A DNA stretch of 64,000 nt from Variovorax sp. 54 (GTDB lineage Bacteria > Pseudomonadota > Gammaproteobacteria > Burkholderiales > Burkholderiaceae_C), in the NCBI RefSeq assembly GCF_002754375.1, contig NZ_PEFF01000001.1:4543501-4607500 (forward strand). Direction: 5' to 3'. The notes beneath the pieces were generated by a model, which was given only the letters and a program-made list of their open reading frames with translations, searched no databases and had not been told where the DNA came from. A program made the translations under genes and the position numbers. Position 1 is the stretch's first letter. Each line of letters opens with the position of its first letter. Below are positions 44,662 through 55,444 of this stretch, in pieces.

Positions 44662-46173
44662 ATGGAACTGTTTGAACACCTCTCGATGGGTTTTGGCGTT
44701 GCCTTTACCTTCACGAACCTGCTGTACTGCCTGGTCGGCTGCATTCTGGGCACGCTGATCGGCGTGCTCCCGGGCATCGGCCCGGTCGCGACCATCGCGA
44801 TGCTGCTGCCCGCCACGTACGCGCTGCCGCCCGTGTCGGCGCTGATCATGCTGGCCGGTATCTATTACGGCGCGCAATACGGTGGCTCGACCACCGCGAT
44901 TCTGGTAAACCTGCCGGGCGAATCGTCGTCGGTGGTGACCGTGATCGACGGCTACCAGATGGCGCGCAAGGGCCGAGCAGGTCCGGCGCTCGCCGCGGCC
45001 GGCCTGGGCTCGTTCTTCGCAGGTTGCGTCGGCACGCTGATTCTTGCCGCCTTCGCTCCGCCGCTGACCGAGCTGGCCTTCAAGTTCGGCCCGGCCGAAT
45101 ACTTCTCGCTGATGATCCTGGGCCTGATCGGCGCCGTGGTGCTGGCATCGGGTTCGCTGCTCAAGGCGATCGCGATGATCGTGCTGGGCCTGCTGATGGG
45201 CCTGGTCGGTACCGACGTGAACTCGGGTGTCGCACGCTACAGCTTCGACATTCCTGAACTCACCGACGGCATCGGCTTCGTGGCCATCGCCATGGGCGTG
45301 TTCGGCTACGGCGAAATCATTGCCAACCTCTCGCGTCCGGACGACGAGCGCGAAGTGTTCACCGCCAAGGTCTCGGGCCTGTTCCCGACCAAGGAAGACT
45401 TCAAGCGCATGGTGCCTGCCGTGCTGCGCGGCACGGCGCTGGGTTCTGCCCTGGGCATCCTGCCCGGCGGCGGTGCACTGCTGGCGGCTTTCGCGGCCTA
45501 CACCATCGAGAAGAAGACCAAGCTGAAGCCGGGCGAAGTGCCGTTCGGCAAGGGCAACATCCGCGGCGTGGCAGCACCCGAGTCGGCCAACAACGCCGGC
45601 GCGCAGACCTCCTTCATTCCGCTGCTGACGCTGGGCATTCCGCCCAACGCCGTGATGGCGCTGATGGTGGGCGCAATGACCATCCACAACATCCAGCCGG
45701 GCCCGCAGGTGATGACCAGCAACCCCGAGCTGTTCTGGGGCCTGATCGCCTCGATGTGGCTGGGCAACGCGATGCTGATCATCCTGAACCTGCCGCTGAT
45801 CGGCATGTGGATCAAGCTGCTGTCGGTGCCTTACAAGTTCCTGTTCCCGGCGATCGTGCTGTTCTGCGCGATCGGCGTGTACTCGACCAACAACAACACC
45901 TTCGACATCTGGATGGTGGGCATCTTCGGTCTGGTGGGCTACACCTTCTTCAAGCTGGGTTGCGAACCTGCGCCGCTGCTGCTGGGCTTCATCCTGGGCC
46001 CGATGATGGAAGAGAACCTGCGCCGTTCGCTGCTGCTGTCGCGTGGCGACTGGAGCGTGTTCGTGACGCGTCCGATCTCGGCCAGCCTGCTGGCGGCCGC
46101 GGCCCTGCTGCTCATCATCGTGCTGTTGCCGGCCGTGAAGTCCAAACGCGAAGAGGCCTTCGTCGAAGAGTGA
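44662..46173 (+). CDS. tctA: Tripartite tricarboxylate transporter large permease TctA
   Basis: 503 residues, about 11-12 transmembrane segments, with both conserved TctA blocks: GVLPGIGPVATIAMLLPATYALPPVSALIMLAGIYYGAQYGGSTTAILVNLPGE near 33-86 and ESANNAGAQTSFIPLLTLGIPPNAVMALMVGAM near 310-343. Uses the proton or sodium gradient to import carboxylates delivered by a Bug-type receptor. A terminator follows before the tctC gene. Confidence 0.95.
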   Translation: MELFEHLSMGFGVAFTFTNLLYCLVGCILGTLIGVLPGIGPVATIAMLLPATYALPPVSALIMLAGIYYGAQYGGSTTAILVNLPGESSSVVTVIDGYQMARKGRAGPALAAAGLGSFFAGCVGTLILAAFAPPLTELAFKFGPAEYFSLMILGLIGAVVLASGSLLKAIAMIVLGLLMGLVGTDVNSGVARYSFDIPELTDGIGFVAIAMGVFGYGEIIANLSRPDDEREVFTAKVSGLFPTKEDFKRMVPAVLRGTALGSALGILPGGGALLAAFAAYTIEKKTKLKPGEVPFGKGNIRGVAAPESANNAGAQTSFIPLLTLGIPPNAVMALMVGAMTIHNIQPGPQVMTSNPELFWGLIASMWLGNAMLIILNLPLIGMWIKLLSVPYKFLFPAIVLFCAIGVYSTNNNTFDIWMVGIFGLVGYTFFKLGCEPAPLLLGFILGPMMEENLRRSLLLSRGDWSVFVTRPISASLLAAAALLLIIVLLPAVKSKREEAFVEE

Positions 46174-46223: not shown

Positions 46224-46261
46224 CGTTGGGGCTTCGCAGTGGCACGATTGATGCAATGGAT

Positions 46262-46300
46262 TCATATATCTATCCGATAAATCCATTTCCCTTTTCAATG
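46262..46300. promoter_or_regulatory. LysR-type operator, copy A, upstream of tctC
   Basis: An AT-rich island with two T-N11-A dyads: ATATATC-N5-GATAAAT (46264-46282) and CATT-N9-AATG (46284-46300), centres 19 bp apart, as in LysR recognition plus activation sites. 36 of 39 bases match copy B at 54376-54414, beside the LysR gene at 53440-54366. A TCCAAT at 46310 is conserved at the same spacing in copy B. It ends 66 bp before the first possible tctC start. Confidence 0.75.
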
Positions 46301-46366
46301 CCCGGCGTGTCCAATCCTGCGGCCACGTCGGACAAGGCGCGCCCTCGACACACCACCTCGGACACA

Positions 46367-47347
46367 ATGAATTCCATGAAACGAACCACCCGTATCGCGC
46401 TCGCCGCGGCCGCGCTGGTGCTGGCCGCGGTGCCTGCCCTGGCCCAGAATTATCCGAACCGTCCGATTCGCCTGATCGTGCCGTTCCCGGCGGCCGGTGC
46501 CACCGACCTCTTCGCCCGCACGCTGGGCCAGAAGATGAGCGAGAAGCTCGGCGCCCAGCTGGTCATCGACAACAAGCCCGGCGCGGGCGGTGCGATCGGT
46601 TCCGACCAGGCCGCCAAGGCGCCGCCCGACGGCTACACGCTGCTGCTCGCAACCACGAGCACGCACGCCATCGGCCCGGCCATCACGCCCAGGCTGCCCT
46701 ACGACACGGTGCGCGACTTCACGCCCATCGCCCACGTGGGCGATGCGCCGAGCATCATGCTGGTGCCGGTCAACACGCCCGCGAAGACGGTGCGCGAGTG
46801 GATCGACCACGCGAAGAAGAACCCCGGCAAGCTCAACTACGCATCGAGCGGCAACGGCACCATCGTGCAGCTCACGGCGGAGCTGTTCAAGGCACAGGCC
46901 GGCGTGTTCGTCACGCACATTCCCTACCGCGGCACGGCCCTCGCGGTGCCCGACCTCATCAGCGGCAAGGTCGACGTGCTGTTCGACTCGCTGCCCACCG
47001 GCATGCCGCACGTGCGCGACGGCCGGCTGCGCGCACTGGGCGTCACATCGCTCAAGCGCAGCCCGCTGGCGCCCGAGCTGCCGCCCATCGCCGACACGTT
47101 GCCCGGCTTCGAGTCGAACACCTGGTTCGGCTTCTACGGTCCGAAGGGGCTGCCGGCCGACATCGTGGCGCGCGTGAACAAGGCCGCCAACGAGGCGCTG
47201 GCCGACCCTGAAGTGAAAGACAAGCTCGCCCGCCTGGGCATCGAGCCGGCGAACGCGGGCACGCCCGAGCAGTTCGCAAAGATGGTGGCCGTTGACGCCG
47301 CCAAGTGGAAAAAGATCGTCGTCGATCGCAAGATCACCAACGACTAA
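46367..47347 (+). CDS. tctC: Bug-family periplasmic solute receptor (TctC)
   Basis: 326 residues from ATG 46367 (MNSMKRTTR), or 323 from ATG 46376. Sec signal MKRTTRIALAAAALVLAAVPALAQ, then YPNRPIRLIVPFPAAGATDLFARTL, the Bug-fold opening, and GTALAVPDLISGKVDVLFDSLPTGMPHVRDGRLRALGVT, the standard core. These receptors bind carboxylates such as citrate or aromatic acids. The gene has its own promoter region with the LysR-type operator, separate from tctBA. It could serve TctBA or an independent function. Confidence 0.92.
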   Translation: MNSMKRTTRIALAAAALVLAAVPALAQNYPNRPIRLIVPFPAAGATDLFARTLGQKMSEKLGAQLVIDNKPGAGGAIGSDQAAKAPPDGYTLLLATTSTHAIGPAITPRLPYDTVRDFTPIAHVGDAPSIMLVPVNTPAKTVREWIDHAKKNPGKLNYASSGNGTIVQLTAELFKAQAGVFVTHIPYRGTALAVPDLISGKVDVLFDSLPTGMPHVRDGRLRALGVTSLKRSPLAPELPPIADTLPGFESNTWFGFYGPKGLPADIVARVNKAANEALADPEVKDKLARLGIEPANAGTPEQFAKMVAVDAAKWKKIVVDRKITND

Positions 47348-47350
47348 CTA

Positions 47351-47445
47351 GGCTCGCCCCCAGGCTGCGCGCACTTCGTGTCGCTTCGCCAACCCCCTAC
47401 CGGGGGCAACACCTGCGGCCCGGCAAAGCCGGTTCCGCGGTGTTT
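47351..47445. repeat. Intergenic palindromic repeat after tctC
   Basis: Contains CCCCC-TACC-GGGGG and a larger nested hairpin at 47408-47444: AACACC/GGTGTT outer, GCGG/CCGC middle and CCGGC/GCCGG inner arms with an AAA loop. The CTTCGTGTCGCTTCGCC core is a motif I associate with recurrent intergenic elements in Comamonadaceae. It may also terminate tctC transcription, although only TTTC follows the hairpin. Confidence 0.55.
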
Positions 47446-47478
47446 CTGAATGGTTCATGTCGCCCTTGAAAGCACTGT

Positions 47479-49092
47479 ATGAAGTTTGATTACGCCAACC
47501 CCTACCTCTCGACCCGCCTCCCGGTCTTCGCACGCAACGTGGTCGCGACCTCGCATCCGCTGGCCGCGCAGGCGGGCCTGCGCATTCTTCAGCAGGGCGG
47601 CAACGCGGTCGACGCGGCCATTGCCACGGCCGCCGTGATGACGCTGGTCGAGCCCGTGAGCAACGGCCTGGGCAGCGACGCCTTCTGCATCCTGTGGGAC
47701 GGCAAGGAACTGCACGGCCTCAACGCCTCGGGTCCCGCGCCGAAGGCCTGGACGCCCGAGTACTTCAAGGCCAAGTACGGCGCCGACGCCGTCACGCCGC
47801 CGATGCGCGGCATCGACTCGGTCACGGTACCGGGCGCGGTGCGCGGCTGGGTCGCGATGAGCGACCGTTTCGGCAAGCTACCTTTCGCCGACCTGATGGC
47901 GCCCGCCATCGACATCGCCGAGCGCGGCTACCTCGTGCCGCCGGTGGTGCAGGGCAAGTGGGCGGCGGCCACGCCGATCCTGCAATCGCAGCCCGGCTTT
48001 GCGCAGGCCTTCCTGCCCTGGGGCCGCGCGCCCGAGATCGGCGAGCTGTTCCGCTTCACCGCGGCGGCACGCGCGCTCAAGGCCATCGCACGCACCAAGG
48101 GCGAGGCCTACTACAGCGGCGAGATCGCCGAAGCCATCGCCAAGTTTTCGAAGGAACACGGCGGCGCGCTCACCGTGGCCGACATGGCGGCCTACCAGCC
48201 CGAGTGGGTGGCGCCCATCTCGCGCGACTACCGCGGCCACACGCTGCACGAGATCCCGCCGAACGGCCAGGGCATCGCGGCGCTGATCGCGCTGGGCATC
48301 CTCGAGAAGTTCGACATCGCCTCGCTGCCGGTCGACTCGGTGCAGTCGCAGCACTTGCAGATCGAAGCGATGAAGCTGGCCTTCGCCGACGTGTACCGCT
48401 ACGTGTCGGAGCCATCGTCGATGACGGTGACCCCCGCGCAAATGCTCGATGACGCCTACCTGGCTTCGCGTGCGAGACTCATCGACGTGAACAAGGCGCA
48501 GGACTTCAAGGCCGGCAACCCGGTCAAGGGCGGCACCATCTACCTCACCGCGGCGGACGAGAGCGGCATGATGGTGAGCTTCATCCAGAGCAACTACATG
48601 GGCTTCGGCTCGGGTTGCGTCGAACCCGAGTTCGGCATCAGCCTGCAGAACCGCGGCCACGGCTTCAGCCTCAAGGCCGAGAGCCCGAACGTGGTGGCGC
48701 CGGGCAAGCGCCCGTTCCACACCATCATCCCGGCCTTCCTCACCAAGGACGGCCAGCCGGTGATGAGCTTCGGCGTGATGGGCGGCAACATGCAGCCGCA
48801 AGGCCACATGCAGACGCTGGTGCGCATGCTCGACTACGGCCAGAACCCGCAGGCCGCGTGCGACGCACCGCGCTGGCGCTTCAATGCGGGGCTCGAGATC
48901 AACGTCGAGGCCGCGATGAATGCCGACACGCTGCAGGGCCTGCGCGACCTGGGCCATCACCTGGACGTGATCAACGACTCCTACCAGGACTTCGGCGCCG
49001 GCCAGTTCATCTGGCGCGCGGGCGAGCCTTCGGTCGAAGGCTATGTCGCGGCAAGCGATCCGCGCCGCGACGGCCTCGCTGCAGGCTACTGA
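47479..49092 (+). CDS. Gamma-glutamyltransferase family protein (Ntn hydrolase)
   Basis: 537 residues, typical of the GGT family. The autocatalytic cleavage site and nucleophile is Thr353 in KGGTIYLTAAD; other landmarks are AAQAGLRILQQGGNAVDAAIATAAVMTLVEPVSNGLG and the C-terminal GYVAASDPRRDG. There is no recognisable N-terminal signal peptide, unlike the periplasmic E. coli enzyme, suggesting a cytoplasmic location. It could act on gamma-glutamyl compounds or on glutaryl-type amides. Follows tctC by 131 bp on the same strand; they may form one transcript. Confidence 0.9.
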   Translation: MKFDYANPYLSTRLPVFARNVVATSHPLAAQAGLRILQQGGNAVDAAIATAAVMTLVEPVSNGLGSDAFCILWDGKELHGLNASGPAPKAWTPEYFKAKYGADAVTPPMRGIDSVTVPGAVRGWVAMSDRFGKLPFADLMAPAIDIAERGYLVPPVVQGKWAAATPILQSQPGFAQAFLPWGRAPEIGELFRFTAAARALKAIARTKGEAYYSGEIAEAIAKFSKEHGGALTVADMAAYQPEWVAPISRDYRGHTLHEIPPNGQGIAALIALGILEKFDIASLPVDSVQSQHLQIEAMKLAFADVYRYVSEPSSMTVTPAQMLDDAYLASRARLIDVNKAQDFKAGNPVKGGTIYLTAADESGMMVSFIQSNYMGFGSGCVEPEFGISLQNRGHGFSLKAESPNVVAPGKRPFHTIIPAFLTKDGQPVMSFGVMGGNMQPQGHMQTLVRMLDYGQNPQAACDAPRWRFNAGLEINVEAAMNADTLQGLRDLGHHLDVINDSYQDFGAGQFIWRAGEPSVEGYVAASDPRRDGLAAGY

Positions 49093-49113
49093 GGATCAAG
49101 GGATGATCGGGGG

Positions 49114-50067
49114 ATGAACAAAGCAGCCGCATCGGCCGGCACTCCCCCGCACGCACACGAGGCCGCTCGCAAGGGCTACGCCACCGGCCTCGTCCTTGCC
49201 ACGCTGGGCGCCATCGCCTTCAGCGGCAAGGCCATCATCGTCAAGCTGGCGTACCGCTACGGCGTCGACGCCATCACGCTCATCATGCTGCGCATGCTTT
49301 TTGCGCTGCCGCTGTTCGCGCTGATGGCGTGGTGGGCCGGCCGCGGCAAGCCCGCACTCACGACGCGCGACTGGCTCGGCATTTTGGGGCTCGGCTTCTC
49401 GGGCTACTACCTCGCGAGCTTTCTCGACTTTGCCGGGCTGGCCTACATCTCGGCCAGCTTCGAGCGGCTGATCCTGTACCTCAACCCCACGCTGGTGCTG
49501 TTCTTCGGCTGGCTGCTGTACCGGCGCCGCCCGACGCGCCCGCAGGTGTTCGGCATGGTCGTGAGCTATGCCGGCGTGTTGCTGGTGTTCGGCCACGAAC
49601 TCTGGACCGGCGGCGACGGCAAGGGCGGCGGCGCTGCGGCATGGGGCGCGTTCCTCGTGTTCCTGAGCGCGGTGAGCTATGCGGGCTACCTCGTGTACAG
49701 CGGCGAGTTCGTCAAGCGGCTGGGCTCGCTGCGGCTCGTGGGGCTGGCGACCACTGTGGCCTGCCTGCTGTGCATCCTGCAGTTCGTGCTCACGCGGCCG
49801 ATGAGCGCGGCGATGGCGGTCGCGCCCGAGGTGATCTGGCTGTCGGTGCTCAACGCCACGCTCTGCACCGCTGTGCCTGTCCTCATGGTGATGATGGCCA
49901 TCGAGCGCATCGGGCCCGCCATTGCGGCGCAAACCGGCATGATCGGACCCCTGTCGACCATCCTCATGGGGGTGGTCATATTGGGTGAGCCGTTCACCGC
50001 GTGGATCGCGGCCGGCACGGTGCTCGTCATTGCGGGCATCTTCGTTTTCACACGCAAGGGGCGTTAG
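49114..50067 (+). CDS. DMT superfamily transporter, EamA type
   Basis: 317 residues with ten hydrophobic segments and two EamA repeats (GLVLATLGAIAFSGKAIIVKLAYR and AVSYAGYLVYSGEFVKRLG). Probably exports a small metabolite. A 20-residue polar N-terminus with His residues precedes the first helix. It starts 21 bp after the gamma-glutamyltransferase gene and could share its transcript. Confidence 0.88.
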   Translation: MNKAAASAGTPPHAHEAARKGYATGLVLATLGAIAFSGKAIIVKLAYRYGVDAITLIMLRMLFALPLFALMAWWAGRGKPALTTRDWLGILGLGFSGYYLASFLDFAGLAYISASFERLILYLNPTLVLFFGWLLYRRRPTRPQVFGMVVSYAGVLLVFGHELWTGGDGKGGGAAAWGAFLVFLSAVSYAGYLVYSGEFVKRLGSLRLVGLATTVACLLCILQFVLTRPMSAAMAVAPEVIWLSVLNATLCTAVPVLMVMMAIERIGPAIAAQTGMIGPLSTILMGVVILGEPFTAWIAAGTVLVIAGIFVFTRKGR

Positions 50068-50129
50068 CTAGCCGCGCAGCGGTTCGCCGCCCCTGCACGA
50101 TCAATCGATCGATCGACTGGAGCAAACAC

Positions 50130-50921
50130 ATGGATCTGGGCATTGCAGGCAAGACCGCGCTGGTGTGCGGCGCGAGCAAGGGGTTGGGCTACGGCTGTGC
50201 CGAGGCGCTGGTGCGCGAGGGCGTCAACGTGGTGATCGTGGCGCGCGGCGCCGAGGCGCTCGACGCTGCAGCCAAGCAGCTGGTGGCAGCGGCCGGCCCG
50301 TCGGGTCCGTTCGTCAAGCACGTGGCGGCCGACATCACCACCGAAGCCGGCCGCGCGGCCGTGTTCGCGCTGGGCCACGACTTCGACATCGTCGTCACCA
50401 ACGCCGGCGGCCCGCCGCCCGGCGATTTCCGCAACTGGGACCGCGAGGCGTGGATCAAGGCGGTCGACGCCAACATGCTCACGCCCATCGAGCTCATCAA
50501 GGCCACGGTGGACGGCATGGCCAAGCGCGGCTTCGGTCGCATCGTCAACATCACGTCGAGCTCGGTGAAGTCGCCGATCGACATCCTGGGCTTGTCGAAC
50601 GGCGCACGCAGCGGCCTCACGGGCTTCGTGGCCGGCGTGGCGCGCACGTCGGTGGCGGCGCAGGGCGTGACCATCAACAACCTGCTGCCGGGCTCCTTCG
50701 AGACCGACCGCCTCAAGGGCACGATGGCCGGTGCCGCGCAGAAGTCGGGCCAGGATTTCGACACCGTGTGGGAAGCGCGCAAGAAGAACATTCCGGCCAA
50801 GCGCTTCGGCAACCCGGCGGAGTTCGGCGCGATCTGCGCGTTCCTGTGCAGCATGCAGGCCGGCTACATGACCGGCCAGAACGTCCTGGCCGACGGCGGC
50901 GCGTACCCCGGAACGTACTGA
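50130..50921 (+). CDS. SDR family protein lacking the usual YxxxK catalytic pair
   Basis: 263 residues from ATG 50130. The NADP motif CGASKGLGYGCA and NAGGPPPGDF are intact and the catalytic Ser is in NITSSSVKSP, but the following region reads ILGLSNGARSGLTGF where classical SDRs have YxxxK. This matches a divergent BKR-like SDR subgroup in which Tyr and Lys are replaced. It retains the C-terminal GQNVLADGGAYPGTY. Its activity may differ from standard oxidoreduction. It starts 62 bp after the EamA gene, next to a TCGATCGATCGA palindrome at about 50106. Confidence 0.9.
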   Translation: MDLGIAGKTALVCGASKGLGYGCAEALVREGVNVVIVARGAEALDAAAKQLVAAAGPSGPFVKHVAADITTEAGRAAVFALGHDFDIVVTNAGGPPPGDFRNWDREAWIKAVDANMLTPIELIKATVDGMAKRGFGRIVNITSSSVKSPIDILGLSNGARSGLTGFVAGVARTSVAAQGVTINNLLPGSFETDRLKGTMAGAAQKSGQDFDTVWEARKKNIPAKRFGNPAEFGAICAFLCSMQAGYMTGQNVLADGGAYPGTY

Positions 50922-50940
50922 CCCGCGCCGCGGCGCGCGT

Positions 50941-51852
50941 TCAGCGCCGCGAGGACACCACGATCCCACCAACGATCAGCACGAAGGCGGCGCCGTGGTA
51001 CCAGTGCGGCGCCTCACCGAGGAAGGCCGCCGACAGCACGGCCGCGAACAGCGGCGTGAGGTTCATGAAGATGCTCGCCGCCTGCGGCCCCGCGCGTTGC
51101 ACGCCGGTGCCCCAGCAGCGGTAGGCCAGCACGGCGGGGCCGATGCCGATGAACAGCATCGCTGCAATGAGCGGCCAGCCGAGGTCGATGTGGGCGTCGG
51201 TCAGCGTCCATTCGCCGGCGGCCAGTGCGCCCGACCACGCGAGGCCGAACACCAGTTGCGCCATGAGGAAGGCGGCCCAGTCTGCGCGCACATTGGCAGG
51301 CTCGTTCGTGCGAGCCAGCAGCCAGCTGTAGAAGGCCCAGGTGATGGTGCCCACGATCATGTACAGGTCGCCCGGCACCAACCGCAGCGCGAGCAGTTGC
51401 TGCCATTCGCCGCGGCTGAGCACCAGCAGCACGCCGAGCATCGACAGCAGCGCGCCGCCCACCGTGCGCCGGCTGGCGCGCGCGCCGAAGCACAGCGTGC
51501 CCACGGCCAGCATCCACAGCGGCAGGCTCGAGCCCACCAGCGTGACGTTGATCGGCGTGGAGGTCTGCAGCGCCAGGTATTGAAACGCGTTGTACAGGCC
51601 GATGCCCAGCAGGCCCAGCAGCGCGTAGCGCTTCCAGTGCGCCCACAGCGGGCTGTCCTGCCGCAGCACCCAGGCCGCCAGCGGCAGCAGCAGCACGAAC
51701 GCGATCACCCAGCGCACGAAGTTCAGCGTCAGCGGTGACACCAGCGCGCGCACCAGCCGGCCGACCACGGCATTGCCGGCCCACAGCAGCGGTGGCACGG
51801 TGAGGAGCAGGGCGGTGAGGGGCGTGAGACGGTGGTGCGATGCGGAAGACAT
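50941..51852 (-). CDS. DMT superfamily transporter, EamA type
   Basis: 303 residues, ten transmembrane segments, RhaT/EamA-type halves (LLLTVPPLLWAGNAVVGRLVRALVSPLTLNFVRWVIAF and LYMIVGTITWAFYSWLLAR). ATG 51852 (MSSASHHRLTPL) is the natural start; the frame remains open upstream only through the antisense of the next gene. Convergent with the SDR (19 bp) and divergent from the quinone reductase gene. Confidence 0.88.
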   Translation of the reverse strand: MSSASHHRLTPLTALLLTVPPLLWAGNAVVGRLVRALVSPLTLNFVRWVIAFVLLLPLAAWVLRQDSPLWAHWKRYALLGLLGIGLYNAFQYLALQTSTPINVTLVGSSLPLWMLAVGTLCFGARASRRTVGGALLSMLGVLLVLSRGEWQQLLALRLVPGDLYMIVGTITWAFYSWLLARTNEPANVRADWAAFLMAQLVFGLAWSGALAAGEWTLTDAHIDLGWPLIAAMLFIGIGPAVLAYRCWGTGVQRAGPQAASIFMNLTPLFAAVLSAAFLGEAPHWYHGAAFVLIVGGIVVSSRR

Positions 51853-51960
51853 GGCCGCCGACTCTACCGGGCCCGCGCAGTGCCCGTGGCTCCTCGCGAA
51901 AAGGCCAAACGTGGCACGATGCCCGTCCCATTCTTTTTTCCCTGCGTGGAGACAGCAACG

Positions 51961-52947
51961 ATGTTGAGCAAAGCCGTCCGTATCGACCGCCATGGCGGTC
52001 CCGAGGAACTGAAGGTCGTCGAGGTCGAGGTGGGCGAGCCCGGCCCCGGCGAGATCCGCATCCGCCACAAGGCCGTGGGCCTGAACTTCATCGACACCTA
52101 CCAGCGCACGGGCCTGTACCCGTTCCAGATGCCGCTGCAGCTGGGCATGGAGGCATCCGGCATCGTCGAGGCGGTGGGCGAGGGCGTGACGCACCTGAAG
52201 GCCGGCGATCGTGCCGCCTACGCGAGCCAGCCGCCCGGCGCGTATTGCGAGCTGCGCGTGATGCCCGCCAAGTGCGTGTGCAAGCTGCCCGACGACATCT
52301 CCTTCGAGACCGGCGCGGCCATGATGCTCAAGGGCCTCACCGCGCAGTACCTGCTGAAGAAGACGCTGCCCGCCGAAGGCCTGCAGCCCGGCGACTTCGT
52401 GCTGTTCCATGCGGCGGCCGGCGGCGTCGGCCTCATTGCCTGCCAGTGGGCCAAGGCGCTCGGCCTGCAGCTCATCGGCACGGCCGGCAGCGATGCCAAG
52501 TGCAAGCTCGCGCTGGCGCACGGCGCGGCGCATGCCATCAACTACAGCACCGAGAACTTCGCGGCGCGCGTGAAGGAGATCACCGGCGGCAAGGGCGTGA
52601 AGGTGGTGTACGACTCGGTGGGTAAGGACACCTTCGAAGGCTCCGTCGACAGCCTGCGCCCCTTCGGCCTGCTGGCGATCTTCGGCAACGGCTCGGGCCC
52701 GGTGCCGCCGATCAACCTCGGCCTGCTGGCCTCGAAGGGCTCGCTCTACGTGACGCGCCCGACGCTGTTCACGCACATCGCCACGCGCGAGAGCACGCAG
52801 GCGATGGCCGGCGACCTGTTCGCCGTGGTGCAAAGCGGCGCGGTGAAGATCCCCATCGACCAGCGCTACGCCCTGGCCGACGTGCAGCAGGCGCACCGCG
52901 ACCTCGAGGCGCGCAAGACCACGGGCTGCACCATCCTCACGCTCTGA
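51961..52947 (+). CDS. NADPH:quinone oxidoreductase, QorA-type zinc-independent MDR
   Basis: 328 residues. N-terminal GroES-like domain (GEIRIRHKAVGLNFIDTYQRTGLYPFQMPLQLGMEASG, the quinone oxidoreductase signature) and a Rossmann domain with AAAGGVGLIACQWAKALG. The structural and catalytic zinc cysteines of alcohol dehydrogenases are absent, as expected for QorA. GGAG precedes ATG 51961 at suitable spacing. Reduces quinones using NADPH, mainly detoxifying. Confidence 0.93.
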   Translation: MLSKAVRIDRHGGPEELKVVEVEVGEPGPGEIRIRHKAVGLNFIDTYQRTGLYPFQMPLQLGMEASGIVEAVGEGVTHLKAGDRAAYASQPPGAYCELRVMPAKCVCKLPDDISFETGAAMMLKGLTAQYLLKKTLPAEGLQPGDFVLFHAAAGGVGLIACQWAKALGLQLIGTAGSDAKCKLALAHGAAHAINYSTENFAARVKEITGGKGVKVVYDSVGKDTFEGSVDSLRPFGLLAIFGNGSGPVPPINLGLLASKGSLYVTRPTLFTHIATRESTQAMAGDLFAVVQSGAVKIPIDQRYALADVQQAHRDLEARKTTGCTILTL

Positions 52948-53057
52948 GGCGAAGCGGCGGGCCGGCGGGTGATGTCCTACGCGCGGTGGGGTGTCACACC
53001 TTCGACTTGTGGCGGGCGCAATTTGTAGCCTCACTTGTCCCCCCGCAAAAGCCCGCC

Positions 53058-53480
53058 ATGACCACCGTCCGCGCCTTCATCGTCGAAGACAACCCCGCCC
53101 AGCGCGCGAGCCTGGTGGGCACGCTGCGCGAAATGGCGCGCATCGATCCGGTCGGCCAGGCCGAGTCACAGGCCGAGGGCACGCGCTGGCTCACGCACAA
53201 CCCGGCGCTGTGGGACCTGGCCATCGTCGACCTGTTTCTGGGTGACGGCACGGGCTACAGCGTGCTTGAGGCCTGCCGCAACCGCGATCCGAAACAGAAG
53301 ATGGTGGTGCTGAGCAACCACGCCACGCCCGAGACGCGCCGCAAGTGCGCGCAGCTCGGTGCCGACGCCGTGTTCGACAAGGCCACCGAGGTCGAGGACC
53401 TGATCGACTTCTGCGTGCGCCAGCGGCAGGAGCGTTTCTTCAGCGCGCCTTTGTCGCCGACGCGGCCGGCGCCTCACTGA
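53058..53480 (+). CDS. Single-domain response regulator
   Basis: 140 residues consisting of one receiver domain and a short tail. Acidic pair Glu10-Asp11, phospho-acceptor Asp58 in LAIVDLFLG, Ser86 and Lys108 complete the active site, so it should be phosphorylatable. No output domain and no adjacent histidine kinase exist, so it must receive signals from an orphan or distant kinase. ATG 53058 (MTTVRAFIVEDN) is the start; its 3' 41 bases overlap the convergent LysR gene. Confidence 0.88.
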   Translation: MTTVRAFIVEDNPAQRASLVGTLREMARIDPVGQAESQAEGTRWLTHNPALWDLAIVDLFLGDGTGYSVLEACRNRDPKQKMVVLSNHATPETRRKCAQLGADAVFDKATEVEDLIDFCVRQRQERFFSAPLSPTRPAPH

Positions 53481-54366
53481 GCGCGGCCGTCTCGCGCACC
53501 ATGCGCCAGACCCGCTGGGCGAGCGGCGACAGTTCGCGGTTGCGGCGCCGGATCAGCATGATCGCGCGCTGCACATTCGGCACCAGCGGGCGCACCACCA
53601 ACCGCGCCAGTCCCTCGGGCGGCAACGACAGCCCCGGCATCACGCTGATGCCGATGCCGGCCTCGACCATGCGGAACACGGTGGTCGCATGGCCCAGCTG
53701 CTGCTTCACGTCGCAGCGCGCGCCGTGCCGCTCCAGCGCCTGGTCGATGAGACGCCGGCTGCCCGAGGCGTGATCGAGCAGCACCAGCGGCTGGCCGTCG
53801 AGCGCCGACCAGTTCACCGAGGCCTTTTTTTGCGTCAGCCGATGGCCGGGCAGCGTGACCACCATGAAGGGGTCGGCGAGGATCGATTCGCAGTGCAGGT
53901 CGTCGGCTTCCGAGGGCTCGATCACCACGCCGAAATCGACCTCGCCGCTGCGCACGCTGTCGAGCACGTCCTGCTGGATGCGGTCGAGCAGCAGAAACTG
54001 GATGCCCGGCGCCTGCACCGCACAGGCCGCAATGCAGTCGGGCATGAGGTTGGCCGACAGTGTGGGGCTGCTTGCCACGCGCACCTTGCCGCCACGCGCG
54101 CTGGCCAGGCCCGCCACGTCCTGCAGGGTCTGGTCGAGTTCGTCGAGCACGCGGTCGAGCCGGGCCGCGAACGAGTGGCCGGCTTCGGTCAGCACCACCT
54201 CGCGCGTGGTGCGGTCCAGCAGCTTGAGGCCGAGCTGGGCCTCGAGTTCCGAGATCGACCGGCTCACCGCCGGCTGGCTCAGGCCCACCTGGTCGCCGGC
54301 GCGGCTGAAGTTGCGGCCCTCGGCCACCGAGCGGAAGACGCGGAGTTGGCGCAGCGTGACGTTCAT
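53440..54366 (-). CDS. LysR family transcriptional regulator, CbbR/CysB-like branch
   Basis: 308 residues with an N-terminal winged HTH (LRQLRVFRSVAEGRNFSRAGDQVGLSQPAVSRSISELEAQLGLKLLDRTTREVVLTEAG) and an effector domain (VRVASSPTLSANLMPDCI onward). It is divergent from a BASS transporter across only 61 bp containing operator copy B, and a near-identical operator lies before tctC. The best reading is a regulator of organic-acid uptake that senses one of the carried compounds. Its 3' end overlaps the response regulator gene by 41 bp. Confidence 0.92.
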   Translation of the reverse strand: MNVTLRQLRVFRSVAEGRNFSRAGDQVGLSQPAVSRSISELEAQLGLKLLDRTTREVVLTEAGHSFAARLDRVLDELDQTLQDVAGLASARGGKVRVASSPTLSANLMPDCIAACAVQAPGIQFLLLDRIQQDVLDSVRSGEVDFGVVIEPSEADDLHCESILADPFMVVTLPGHRLTQKKASVNWSALDGQPLVLLDHASGSRRLIDQALERHGARCDVKQQLGHATTVFRMVEAGIGISVMPGLSLPPEGLARLVVRPLVPNVQRAIMLIRRRNRELSPLAQRVWRMVRETAALSEAPAASATKAR

Positions 54367-54375
54367 GCGCTCAAA

Positions 54376-54414
54376 TCATATATCCATCCGATAAATCCAT
54401 TTCTCTTTTGAATG
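54376..54414. promoter_or_regulatory. LysR-type operator, copy B, between lysR and BASS transporter gene
   Basis: Same 39-bp block as copy A (36 of 39 identical): ATATATC-N5-GATAAAT dyad at 54378-54396 and CATT-N9-AATG at 54398-54414. It fills most of the 61-bp gap, so it must also hold the core promoters of one or both genes. The LysR start lies 9 bp away on one side and the BASS start 13 bp on the other. Confidence 0.8.
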
Positions 54415-54427
54415 GGCGAAAGGTCCA

Positions 54428-55444
54428 ATGCAGGCCATGGCACGTTCACGCTTTCTCCCCGACAACTTCACGCTCACGCTCGTCGCGGTCGTCACCCTGG
54501 CCAGCCTGCTGCCCGCAAGTGGCCGCGTGGCGCATTTCTTCGAGGGCCTGACCACGGTCGCGATCGGGCTGCTGTTCTTTTTGCACGGCGCCAAGCTGTC
54601 GCGCGAGGCGATCCTTGCGGGCATCACGCATTGGCGGCTGCACCTGCTGGTGTTCGCCTGCACCTTCGTCCTGTTTCCGCTGCTGGGGCTCGCGCTGCGG
54701 CCCGTGCTGGGGCCGCTGGTGACGCCGCAGCTGTACACGGGCGTGCTGTTCCTGTGCGTGCTGCCGGCGACGGTGCAGTCGGCGATTGCGTTCACGGCGA
54801 TGGCGCGGGGGAACATGCCGGCTGCGATCTGCAGCGCTTCGGCCTCGACGCTGCTGGGCGTGTTCATCACGCCGGTGCTGGTGAGCCTGGTGGTGTTGCC
54901 TGAAGGCGGCGCGGTGGCGTCGTCTTCGTCGCTCGATGCGATCGGGCGGATTCTGTTGCAGCTGTTGGTGCCGTTCGTGATCGGGCACCTGTCGCGTCCG
55001 TTGATCGGCAAGTGGATTCAGAAGCGAGCTGCGGTGCTGAAGTTTGTGGACCAGGGGTCGATTCTTTTGGTGGTCTATACGGCGTTCAGCGCGGCTGTGA
55101 TCGAAGGGCTTTGGAAGCAGATTCCTGTGAGTGCGTTGTTGGGGCTGCTGTTGGTTTGTGGGGTGTTGCTGGCGTTGGCGCTGGGGCTCACGACGGTCAT
55201 GGCGCGGCGCTTTGGGTTCAACATTGAGGACGAGATCACCATCGTCTTTTGCGGCTCGAAGAAGAGCTTGGCGAGCGGGATTCCGATGGCGAAGGTGCTG
55301 TTTGCATCGCACGCCGTTGGTGCGATCGTGCTGCCGCTGATGCTGTTTCATCAGATGCAGTTGATGGTTTGTGCGGTGCTTGCTCAGCGGTATGCGCGTC
55401 GGGCTGCTGCCTCCGCTGCGCATGGGTTGAGAACTGCTGAGTAG
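54428..55444 (+). CDS. BASS family transporter (bile acid:sodium symporter-like, SBF_like)
   Basis: 338 residues with ten hydrophobic segments and the SBF_like marks HGAKLSREAILAGITHWRLHLLVFACTFVLFPLLG, CVLPATVQSAIAFTAMARGN and FCGSKKSLASGIPMAKVLF. Members carry organic anions with sodium. ATG 54428 follows GAAAGG by five bases; ATG 54437 is an alternative. Codon usage changes within the gene: after about 55000 many codons end in T (TTG, GTT, GGT) unlike the G/C-ending first half, up to the repeat block that follows. Confidence 0.9.
   Translation: MQAMARSRFLPDNFTLTLVAVVTLASLLPASGRVAHFFEGLTTVAIGLLFFLHGAKLSREAILAGITHWRLHLLVFACTFVLFPLLGLALRPVLGPLVTPQLYTGVLFLCVLPATVQSAIAFTAMARGNMPAAICSASASTLLGVFITPVLVSLVVLPEGGAVASSSSLDAIGRILLQLLVPFVIGHLSRPLIGKWIQKRAAVLKFVDQGSILLVVYTAFSAAVIEGLWKQIPVSALLGLLLVCGVLLALALGLTTVMARRFGFNIEDEITIVFCGSKKSLASGIPMAKVLFASHAVGAIVLPLMLFHQMQLMVCAVLAQRYARRAAASAAHGLRTAE

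What the first reader, a model, noticed from the sequence alone, without database searches (positions are those of the whole stretch)
46262..54414. A 39-bp LysR-type operator shared by the tctC and BASS promoters 8 kb apart
Positions 46262-46300 and 54376-54414 match at 36 of 39 bases, although they are in unrelated intergenic regions of a GC-rich genome and are themselves AT-rich. Each holds two T-N11-A dyads (ATATATC-N5-GATAAAT and CATT-N9-AATG) with centres 19 bp apart, and a TCCAAT at the same offset beyond. Copy B is in the 61-bp gap between a LysR gene and a BASS transporter gene; copy A precedes tctC and the gamma-glutamyltransferase gene. This defines a probable regulon: one LysR protein, two unrelated uptake systems and a gamma-glutamyl enzyme.
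Basis: partly seen in the sequence, partly recalled or inferred. Interest (0 to 1): 0.72.

Follow-up and report, generated by a model that had tools for sequence, protein, structure and literature searches.

The report
One regulator's operator at two promoters
A soil bacterium carries the same rare DNA control site in front of two different transporter genes, and comparison with several hundred relatives shows the full site only where one particular regulator gene is present, so one protein very probably controls both.

Summary
Sites A (46262-46300) and B (54376-54414) match at 36 of 39 bases and are the only two copies found in the 6.64-Mb Variovorax genome. Of 299 family genomes, 40 match an operator profile and 40 hold this LysR; they are the same 40. 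In Variovorax, 41 of 44 LysR-positive and 0 of 57 LysR-negative genomes have the site, although 55 of the 57 keep GGT and 21 keep BASS. B is the family-wide lysR-BASS operator; A is a lineage-specific addition at tctC. In three relatives the LysR gene sits beside tctC and BASS keeps an operator without it. Site A occurs only at tctC promoters lacking another LysR ('LysR2'): LysR2 in 0 of 10 with A, 22 of 29 without. At 14 of 14 sites without adjacent lysR the ATCATA hexamer (likely lysR -10) is broken while the operator core persists; it is intact in 60 of 66 beside lysR. Best reading: one autoregulated LysR controls BASS and tctC-(GGT-EamA). Ligand, sign of control and GGT's inclusion are inferred. 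Ordinary mechanism, unusually clear evolutionary record.

The parts
46262..46300 (+). Operator copy A, in the tctC promoter, with no lysR beside it ('orphan' operator)
46247..46254 (+). ATTGATGC upstream of copy A; the same 8-mer (once ATTAATGC) precedes all 14 operators without an adjacent lysR that were collected
   Evidence: function unexplained
46310..46315 (+). TCCAAT at fixed offset from the operator, probable -10 element of the tctC promoter
   Evidence: TCCAAT in 14 of 14 orphan sites; function is inference
46376..47347 (+). tctC, TctC-family periplasmic receptor (an in-frame ATG also at 46367)
   Evidence: PF03401
47479..49092 (+). gamma-glutamyltransferase gene, inferred to be co-transcribed with tctC
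   Evidence: PF01019; gene order
49114..50067 (+). EamA-family transporter gene, end of the inferred tctC-GGT-EamA unit
   Evidence: PF00892
53440..54366 (-). LysR-type regulator (LysR1), inferred to bind A and B
   Evidence: PF00126 + PF03466; co-occurrence
54375..54380 (-). TATGAT on the lysR strand (ATCATA on +), probable lysR -10; only 8 nt separate it from the lysR ATG, so the mRNA is probably leaderless or nearly so; overlaps the left edge of the operator
   Evidence: function is inference
54376..54414 (+). Operator copy B between lysR and the BASS gene, the family-wide operator
54424..54429 (+). TCCAAT at fixed offset, probable -10 element of the BASS promoter
   Evidence: function is inference
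54437..55444 (+). BASS-type transporter gene (SBF_like, PF13593); probable start is the second ATG (MARSRFLPDNF), 7 nt after TCCAAT; listed start 54428
44662..46173 (+). tctA (context); in 25 of 39 Variovorax genomes read, a lysR (LysR2 in 22, LysR1 in 3) lies between tctA and tctC
   Evidence: PF01970

Best explanation
Both sites are operators of the LysR-type protein encoded at 53440-54366 (LysR1). Shown by comparison: B is the operator of the divergent lysR1-BASS pair across the family; the full operator was found only with LysR1; A is a second operator at tctC in some Variovorax and the Xenophilus group. Inferred mechanism: a LysR1 tetramer grips the ATATATC-N5-GATAAAT dyad (recognition site) and reaches over the CATTTC...AATG stretch (activation site). 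At B it covers the lysR1 -10 (autorepression) and, with its unknown ligand, drives BASS from the TCCAAT -10. At A it drives tctC and probably GGT-EamA from an identically spaced TCCAAT. Inferred history: a lysR1-operator cassette came to stand at tctC, where a different regulator (LysR2) stands in many relatives. One of the two lysR1 copies was then lost, at tctC in the window's lineage and at BASS in three others, leaving one regulator for two operators.
For: The same 40 of 299 family genomes hold LysR1 and the operator (set equality checked). In each of those 40 a match lies between LysR and BASS, and 4 (G000, G122, G071, G255) have a second match at tctC. In the genus, 41 of 44 against 0 of 57, with BASS in 64 and GGT in 99 of 101. 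Three genomes (L016, L018, L023) have their only LysR1 orthologue beside tctC (next LysR 36-37% identical) and a lysR-less operator at BASS. ATCATA is intact in 60 of 66 lysR-adjacent and 0 of 14 orphan sites, while TCCAAT and the 13 bases ATAAATCCATTTC are identical in 14 of 14 orphans. Site A and LysR2 exclude each other: LysR2 in 0 of 10 against 22 of 29. LysR2 gave no match at E<=1e-60 in the 10 site-A Variovorax and 2 site-A Xenophilus-group genomes searched, and matched in both positive controls (in the larger genomes 126 candidates were scored). The tctC-side LysR1 proteins form one supported group (98/83); joining them to the window lineage's LysR1 is rejected (p-AU 2e-53). The state of the tctC promoter needs 5-7 changes on four gene trees.
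Against: No binding, expression or phenotype data. Site A is missing from 24 of 34 LysR1-positive Variovorax genomes with a tctC promoter read; 7 of these have no LysR2 either. Four of those 7 were searched genome-wide for LysR2 and lack it, so absence of LysR2 alone does not predict site A. The AATG half of the second dyad is only 54-83% conserved. Neither promoter matches a sigma-70 consensus scan, so the -10 assignments rest on conservation alone. No genome holding both lysR1 copies was seen, so duplication followed by reciprocal loss is inferred; transfer or gene movement would also fit. Genomes are related, so the counts are not independent, and the groups of the AU tests were chosen after seeing trees.
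Confidence: 0.86

Rival explanations
1. Site A is a relic: LysR1 once stood beside tctC and left its operator, which is bound weakly or not at all and no longer matters.
For: In the window's lineage there is no lysR at tctC, and the likely lysR -10 element of site A has decayed.
Against: Selective decay: the lysR -10 is broken in 14 of 14 orphan sites and the neighbouring spacer varies, yet ATAAATCCATTTC and TCCAAT are identical in 14 of 14 (sites were collected by similarity to the core, which inflates core conservation somewhat). A and B score the same, 64.6 bits.
Confidence: 0.07
2. Both sites are bound by another protein of the genome (a different LTTR or other factor), and the LysR gene beside B is coincidental.
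For: The genome is rich in LysR-like stretches (159 loose first-look candidates), and LTTR sites resemble each other.
Against: Profile matches and LysR1 occur in the same 40 of 299 genomes, and the 27-mer is absent from 57 of 57 LysR1-negative Variovorax. The site sits 10 bp from the lysR1 start in 55 of 66 lysR-adjacent cases, and in three genomes it stands beside lysR1 at tctC.
Confidence: 0.05
3. A and B are copies of a dispersed repeat or mobile-element end that happen to lie in promoters.
For: Two near-identical AT-rich stretches in a GC-rich genome.
Against: Only two copies in 6.64 Mb. All 44 profile matches lie at LysR-BASS or tctC promoters. Of the 17 genomes outside Variovorax hit by the shorter 24-mer pattern, 15 are at LysR-BASS and 2 (L039, L044, at 2 mismatches) are not.
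Confidence: 0.01

Closest known systems
Divergent LysR-target pairs with one shared, autoregulated operator (LTTR recognition and activation sites), e.g. LysG-lysE
   Same: Short intergenic region, overlapping divergent promoters, inverted-repeat recognition site, regulator beside its target; a leaderless target transcript and autorepression are described for LysG-lysE (PMC5648196, passages read)
   Different: Here the operator also stands alone at a second promoter 8 kb away; ligand and sign of control are unknown
YfeR-YfeH of enterobacteria (LysR beside an SBF_like/BASS-type transporter)
   Same: Pairing of an LTTR with a BASS-type transporter (recalled from memory; one search shows only that YfeR is predicted to be a LysR-type factor)
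   Different: Orthology, operator sequence and function not compared here; I recall no tctC arm
Non-orthologous regulator replacement and regulon expansion in Proteobacteria (comparative genomics, PMC5343134)
   Same: Different local regulators control the same genes in different lineages; duplication and loss of factors and sites reshape regulons (passages read)
   Different: Here several states (LysR2 in place; LysR1 in place; orphan operator served from a distance; neither) coexist within one genus, with decay of the regulator's own likely promoter hexamer at orphan sites

Membership tests
LysR-type regulator operator (recognition + activation site) | LysR-family protein with HTH_1 and LysR_substrate domains | tested here: met
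   PF00126 9.8e-23, PF03466 5.5e-45
LysR-type regulator operator (recognition + activation site) | T-N11-A in an inverted repeat as recognition site | tested here: met
   ATATATC-N5-GATAAAT; a T-N11-A pair is 100% and 98% conserved in 63 LysR-BASS sites
LysR-type regulator operator (recognition + activation site) | Second, weaker activation site next to the promoter | tested here: inconclusive
   CATT 94-100%, AATG 54-83% conserved
LysR-type regulator operator (recognition + activation site) | Operator between divergent regulator and target genes | tested here: met
   B; 63 distinct LysR-BASS site sequences, in one of which (L020) lysR is 1.25 kb away
LysR-type regulator operator (recognition + activation site) | Protein binds the site; ligand-dependent activation; autorepression | not testable with these tools
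   needs EMSA/footprinting and reporter assays
Regulon of one factor | Sites occur only in genomes with the factor | tested here: met
   same 40 of 299 genomes by profile; 41 of 44 v 0 of 57; a shorter, looser pattern had 2 hits in genomes without the factor (L039, L044)
Regulon of one factor | Only one candidate orthologue in the genome serves all sites | tested here: met
   one LysR1 in the own genome (E<=1e-40; 150 of 162 candidates scored)
Regulon of one factor | Both targets kept under the factor in relatives | tested here: inconclusive
   BASS arm kept in every LysR1 genome assessable; tctC arm in 10 of 34 LysR1-positive Variovorax genomes read
YfeR-YfeH pair | Regulator and transporter orthologous to YfeR and YfeH | not tested
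   no E. coli comparison made; resemblance recalled

The most novel reading that the evidence does not exclude
A regulator take-over caught at several stages within one genus: the LysR2 of tctC is replaced by a lysR1-operator cassette from the BASS locus; one lysR1 copy is then lost, from either end, while both operators stay under selection and only the lost gene's own promoter hexamer decays. Two unrelated uptake systems thus become one two-promoter regulon of an undescribed ligand. The ATTGATGC shared by the orphan sites would be a further operator element that appears when the place is freed from coding the regulator's start.
Probability: 0.5. Interest if true: 0.55.

Novelty: new member of a known kind. 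Interest (0 to 1): 0.45.

Why it matters
It gives an uncharacterised LysR family a defined operator, a two-promoter regulon and a route to its ligand: perhaps something handled by both this TctC receptor and this BASS-type carrier. It also offers a natural series for how a regulon grows: operator and regulator gene are separable in evolution, and within one genus the regulator is found beside either target. The selective decay of ATCATA tells operator bases from regulator-promoter bases without an experiment.

Tried and rejected
Dispersed repeat: rejected by whole-genome scans. Further regulon members in the own genome: none at E<=10 (150 of 459 first-look candidates scored). In the seven relatives searched with the same profile the only extra hits were weak partial ones (E 0.07 or worse; L120-L123, none of the window's genes beside them). 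A second LysR1 paralogue in the three genomes with the tctC arrangement: none. Sigma-70 consensus promoters: none found. A dyad around ATTGATGC, an IHF site (consensus recalled) or a mini-ORF as its explanation: looked at by eye, none convincing. Order of events at tctC (LysR2 first or later): not resolved; four quick gene trees of 26-27 rows need 5-7 changes. G400, counted as 'neither' at tctC, has a 217-aa non-LysR-like open frame between tctA and tctC (judged by eye).

Paper searches: for this pair or regulon, (5 of 5 papers listed; 10 of 41; 1 of 1; 9 of 9; 4 of 4), and for YfeR/YfeH (5 of 5). No listed paper describes this pair or its operator by title or the start of its abstract; one that names yfeR and yfeH (PMC3946193) was not opened. 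Only open-licence papers are held. Searches were for background (10 of 18, 8 of 31 and 8 of 10 listed).

Limits of the counts: profile R1 was built from 41 sites, of which nine rows come from eight genomes among the 299, so one search is partly trained on its own positives. P values ignore kinship. One search covered 9 of 10 genomes asked (L006 is not held). Nine LysR1-positive Variovorax genomes (G319, G322, G325, G358, G361, G370, G378, G381, G391) were not read at tctC, and G401 has no tctC hit in the stretch read. LysR2 was counted at 50% identity or more. The 80 sites are distinct sequences from the loci held, not one per genome, and were collected by similarity to the core (7 mismatches or fewer in 25 fixed positions) with a LysR, BASS or TctC hit nearby. 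Rows under 250 aa, listed duplicates and hits at 50% identity or less were dropped before the trees; rows of 200 aa or less before those.
Full report
What is there. The window is from a Variovorax close to V. boronicumulans (LysR 99% identical), in a one-contig 6.64-Mb genome. Gene order: tctB 44151, tctA 44662-46173, site A, tctC 46376-47347, gamma-glutamyltransferase 47479-49092, EamA transporter 49114-50067, a second EamA gene on the other strand, a zinc-type dehydrogenase, a response-regulator gene 53058-53480, lysR 53440-54366 (minus), site B, the BASS-type gene to 55444 (PF13593), then a Na/Pi-PhoU gene. Sites A and B match at 36 of 39 bases. They are the only copies found in the genome at up to 3 mismatches and with a 64-position profile at E<=10, both at 64.6 bits (150 of 459 first-look candidates scored).

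Does the site follow the regulator? A profile made from 41 sites was run over 299 genomes of the family: 40 match at E<=1e-4. The LysR protein was run over the same 299: 40 match at E<=1e-90. The two lists are the same 40 genomes, from 21 of 141 genera. In each of the 40 a match lies between this LysR and BASS; four genomes (G000, G122, G071, G255) have a second match at tctC. In 101 Variovorax genomes the 27-base pattern is present in 41 and the LysR in 44, and all 41 are among the 44. The three without it are one LysR cut by a contig end (G378) and two with weaker sites (G381 at 4 and G400 at 5 mismatches, loci L095 and L096). None of the 57 LysR-less genomes has the site, although 21 of them have BASS and 55 have GGT. 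The site therefore tracks the regulator and not its targets. One result goes the other way: a shorter 24-base pattern at 2 mismatches matched 17 genomes outside Variovorax, 15 of them between this LysR and BASS, but two (L039, L044) elsewhere, in genomes without LysR1.

Core arm and added arm. The LysR-BASS operator is found in every assessable LysR1-positive genome except the three in which lysR1 sits at tctC, and there BASS has the operator without the gene. The tctC operator is found only in some Variovorax and in the Xenophilus group. At tctC promoters read in 39 Variovorax genomes, 10 have site A: 7 with lysR1 at BASS and 3 with lysR1 beside tctC. Another 22 carry a different LysR gene (LysR2) between tctA and tctC and lack site A; five of these 22 lack LysR1. 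Seven have neither. Site A and LysR2 never coincide (LysR2 in 0 of 10 against 22 of 29). LysR2 gave no match at E<=1e-60 in the genomes of all 10 site-A Variovorax, of two site-A Xenophilus-group genomes (G071, G255) and of four with neither, and matched in both positive controls.

The three reversed genomes. In G320 (L016/L082), G357 (L018/L085/L099) and G371 (L023/L087) the only LysR1 orthologue sits divergently beside tctC with the operator between them, and BASS has an operator with no lysR beside it. There the response-regulator reading frame ends directly at the BASS operator. Their LysR1 proteins form one group (98/83; the tree is rooted at the midpoint for drawing only). Forcing them with the window lineage's LysR1 proteins, or two of them with G348 (L098) as in the BASS tree, is rejected (p-AU 2e-53 and 3e-76; groups chosen after seeing the trees). 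This fits an old duplication with loss of one copy in each lineage, but no genome with both copies was seen, and transfer is not excluded.

Operator bases against regulator-promoter bases. Eighty distinct site sequences were compared. Beside a lysR (66 sites), ATCATA at the left edge is intact in 60 and reads ATTATA in 3 more; on the lysR strand this is TATGAT or TATAAT. The lysR match starts 10 bp from the T of TCATATATC in 55 of 66, which leaves 8 nt between that hexamer and the ATG. This looks like the lysR -10 of a leaderless or nearly leaderless mRNA, lying inside the operator, which would make LysR1 repress itself. At the 14 sites without adjacent lysR (11 at tctC, 3 at BASS) ATCATA is broken in 14 of 14, into seven different hexamers, while the 13 bases ATAAATCCATTTC and the downstream TCCAAT are identical in all 14. 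At lysR-adjacent sites the downstream hexamer is TCCAAT in 48 of 66 and CCCAAT in 11. In 49 of the 63 LysR-BASS sites an ATG follows 6-8 nt after it, so BASS too may be leaderless. These promoter assignments are inference; consensus scans found no sigma-70 promoter.

Mechanism proposed. LysR1 binds the ATATATC-N5-GATAAAT dyad, contacts the adjacent CATTTC...AATG stretch about two helical turns further on, and activates the promoter whose -10 is TCCAAT. At B it also covers the lysR -10. Shown: anatomy, uniqueness, co-occurrence, exclusivity with LysR2, selective decay. Inferred: binding, activation rather than repression, leaderless mRNAs, operon extent through GGT and EamA (gap tctC-GGT 131 bp here; no terminator-like site on the + strand was found in that gap). 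Unknown: ligand.

Against the reading. Site A is absent from 24 of 34 LysR1-positive Variovorax genomes whose tctC promoter was read (17 with LysR2, 7 with neither), so control of tctC by LysR1 is not a fixed trait. The AATG half is weakly conserved. On QOR, GGT, EamA and TctC trees the promoter state needs 7, 7, 7 and 5 changes, so it switched often, and which state came first is open. All statistics ignore kinship.

What is known. Divergent LysR-target pairs with a shared operator and autorepression are standard; LysG-lysE is one with a leaderless target transcript (PMC5648196, passages read), and a YhaJ paper describes the recognition/activation-site model (PMC11739112, passages read). Replacement of local regulators by unrelated ones and regulon expansion are described for Proteobacteria (PMC5343134, passages read). 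YfeR-YfeH is a LysR/BASS-type pair that I recall. Among the papers listed by the searches for this pair and regulon (one search showed 10 of 41) none matches by title and abstract start. I therefore file it as a new member of a known kind, with an unusually clear evolutionary record.

Noticed in passing
46247-46254; all 14 orphan sites: ATTGATGC (once ATTAATGC) precedes 14 of 14 operators that lack an adjacent lysR, at two loci, with variable bases on both sides; at lysR-adjacent sites the same place reads mostly ATTCATGC or GTTCATGC and holds the lysR start codon. Unexplained.
   Followed up: partly
L009:17959-18900 and the tctC loci of 22 genomes: A different LysR (LysR2) sits between tctA and tctC in 22 of 39 Variovorax genomes read, with a recurring promoter stretch (ATAGTTGAATAAGC..GAATTATCTGGCTTGATGC) of its own.
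   Followed up: partly
L012, L013, L014, L017 upstream of lysR: In the Xenophilus group the lysR match starts 27 bp from the operator and is preceded by a six-codon open frame, at the place where lysR starts elsewhere, whose stop codon overlaps the lysR start (read by eye).
   Followed up: no
L020 / L097 (G358): The lysR gene is about 1.25 kb away from its operator-BASS unit, so something lies between; the operator is intact.
   Followed up: no
window 53440-53480: The response-regulator gene and lysR overlap tail to tail by 41 bp.
   Followed up: no
L101-L105 and the other LysR1-less Variovorax genomes with BASS (21 of 57): BASS genes without LysR1 have no operator at 3 mismatches or fewer; what controls them there is unknown.
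   Followed up: no
L039 and L044: Two 2-mismatch hits of the 24-mer core pattern in genomes without LysR1; L044 lies near a distant LysR (26% identical), L039 near none of the window's genes.
   Followed up: no
G333:C1 near both contig ends: LysR, BASS, GGT and both operators appear twice, near each end of one contig, probably an assembly overlap.
   Followed up: no
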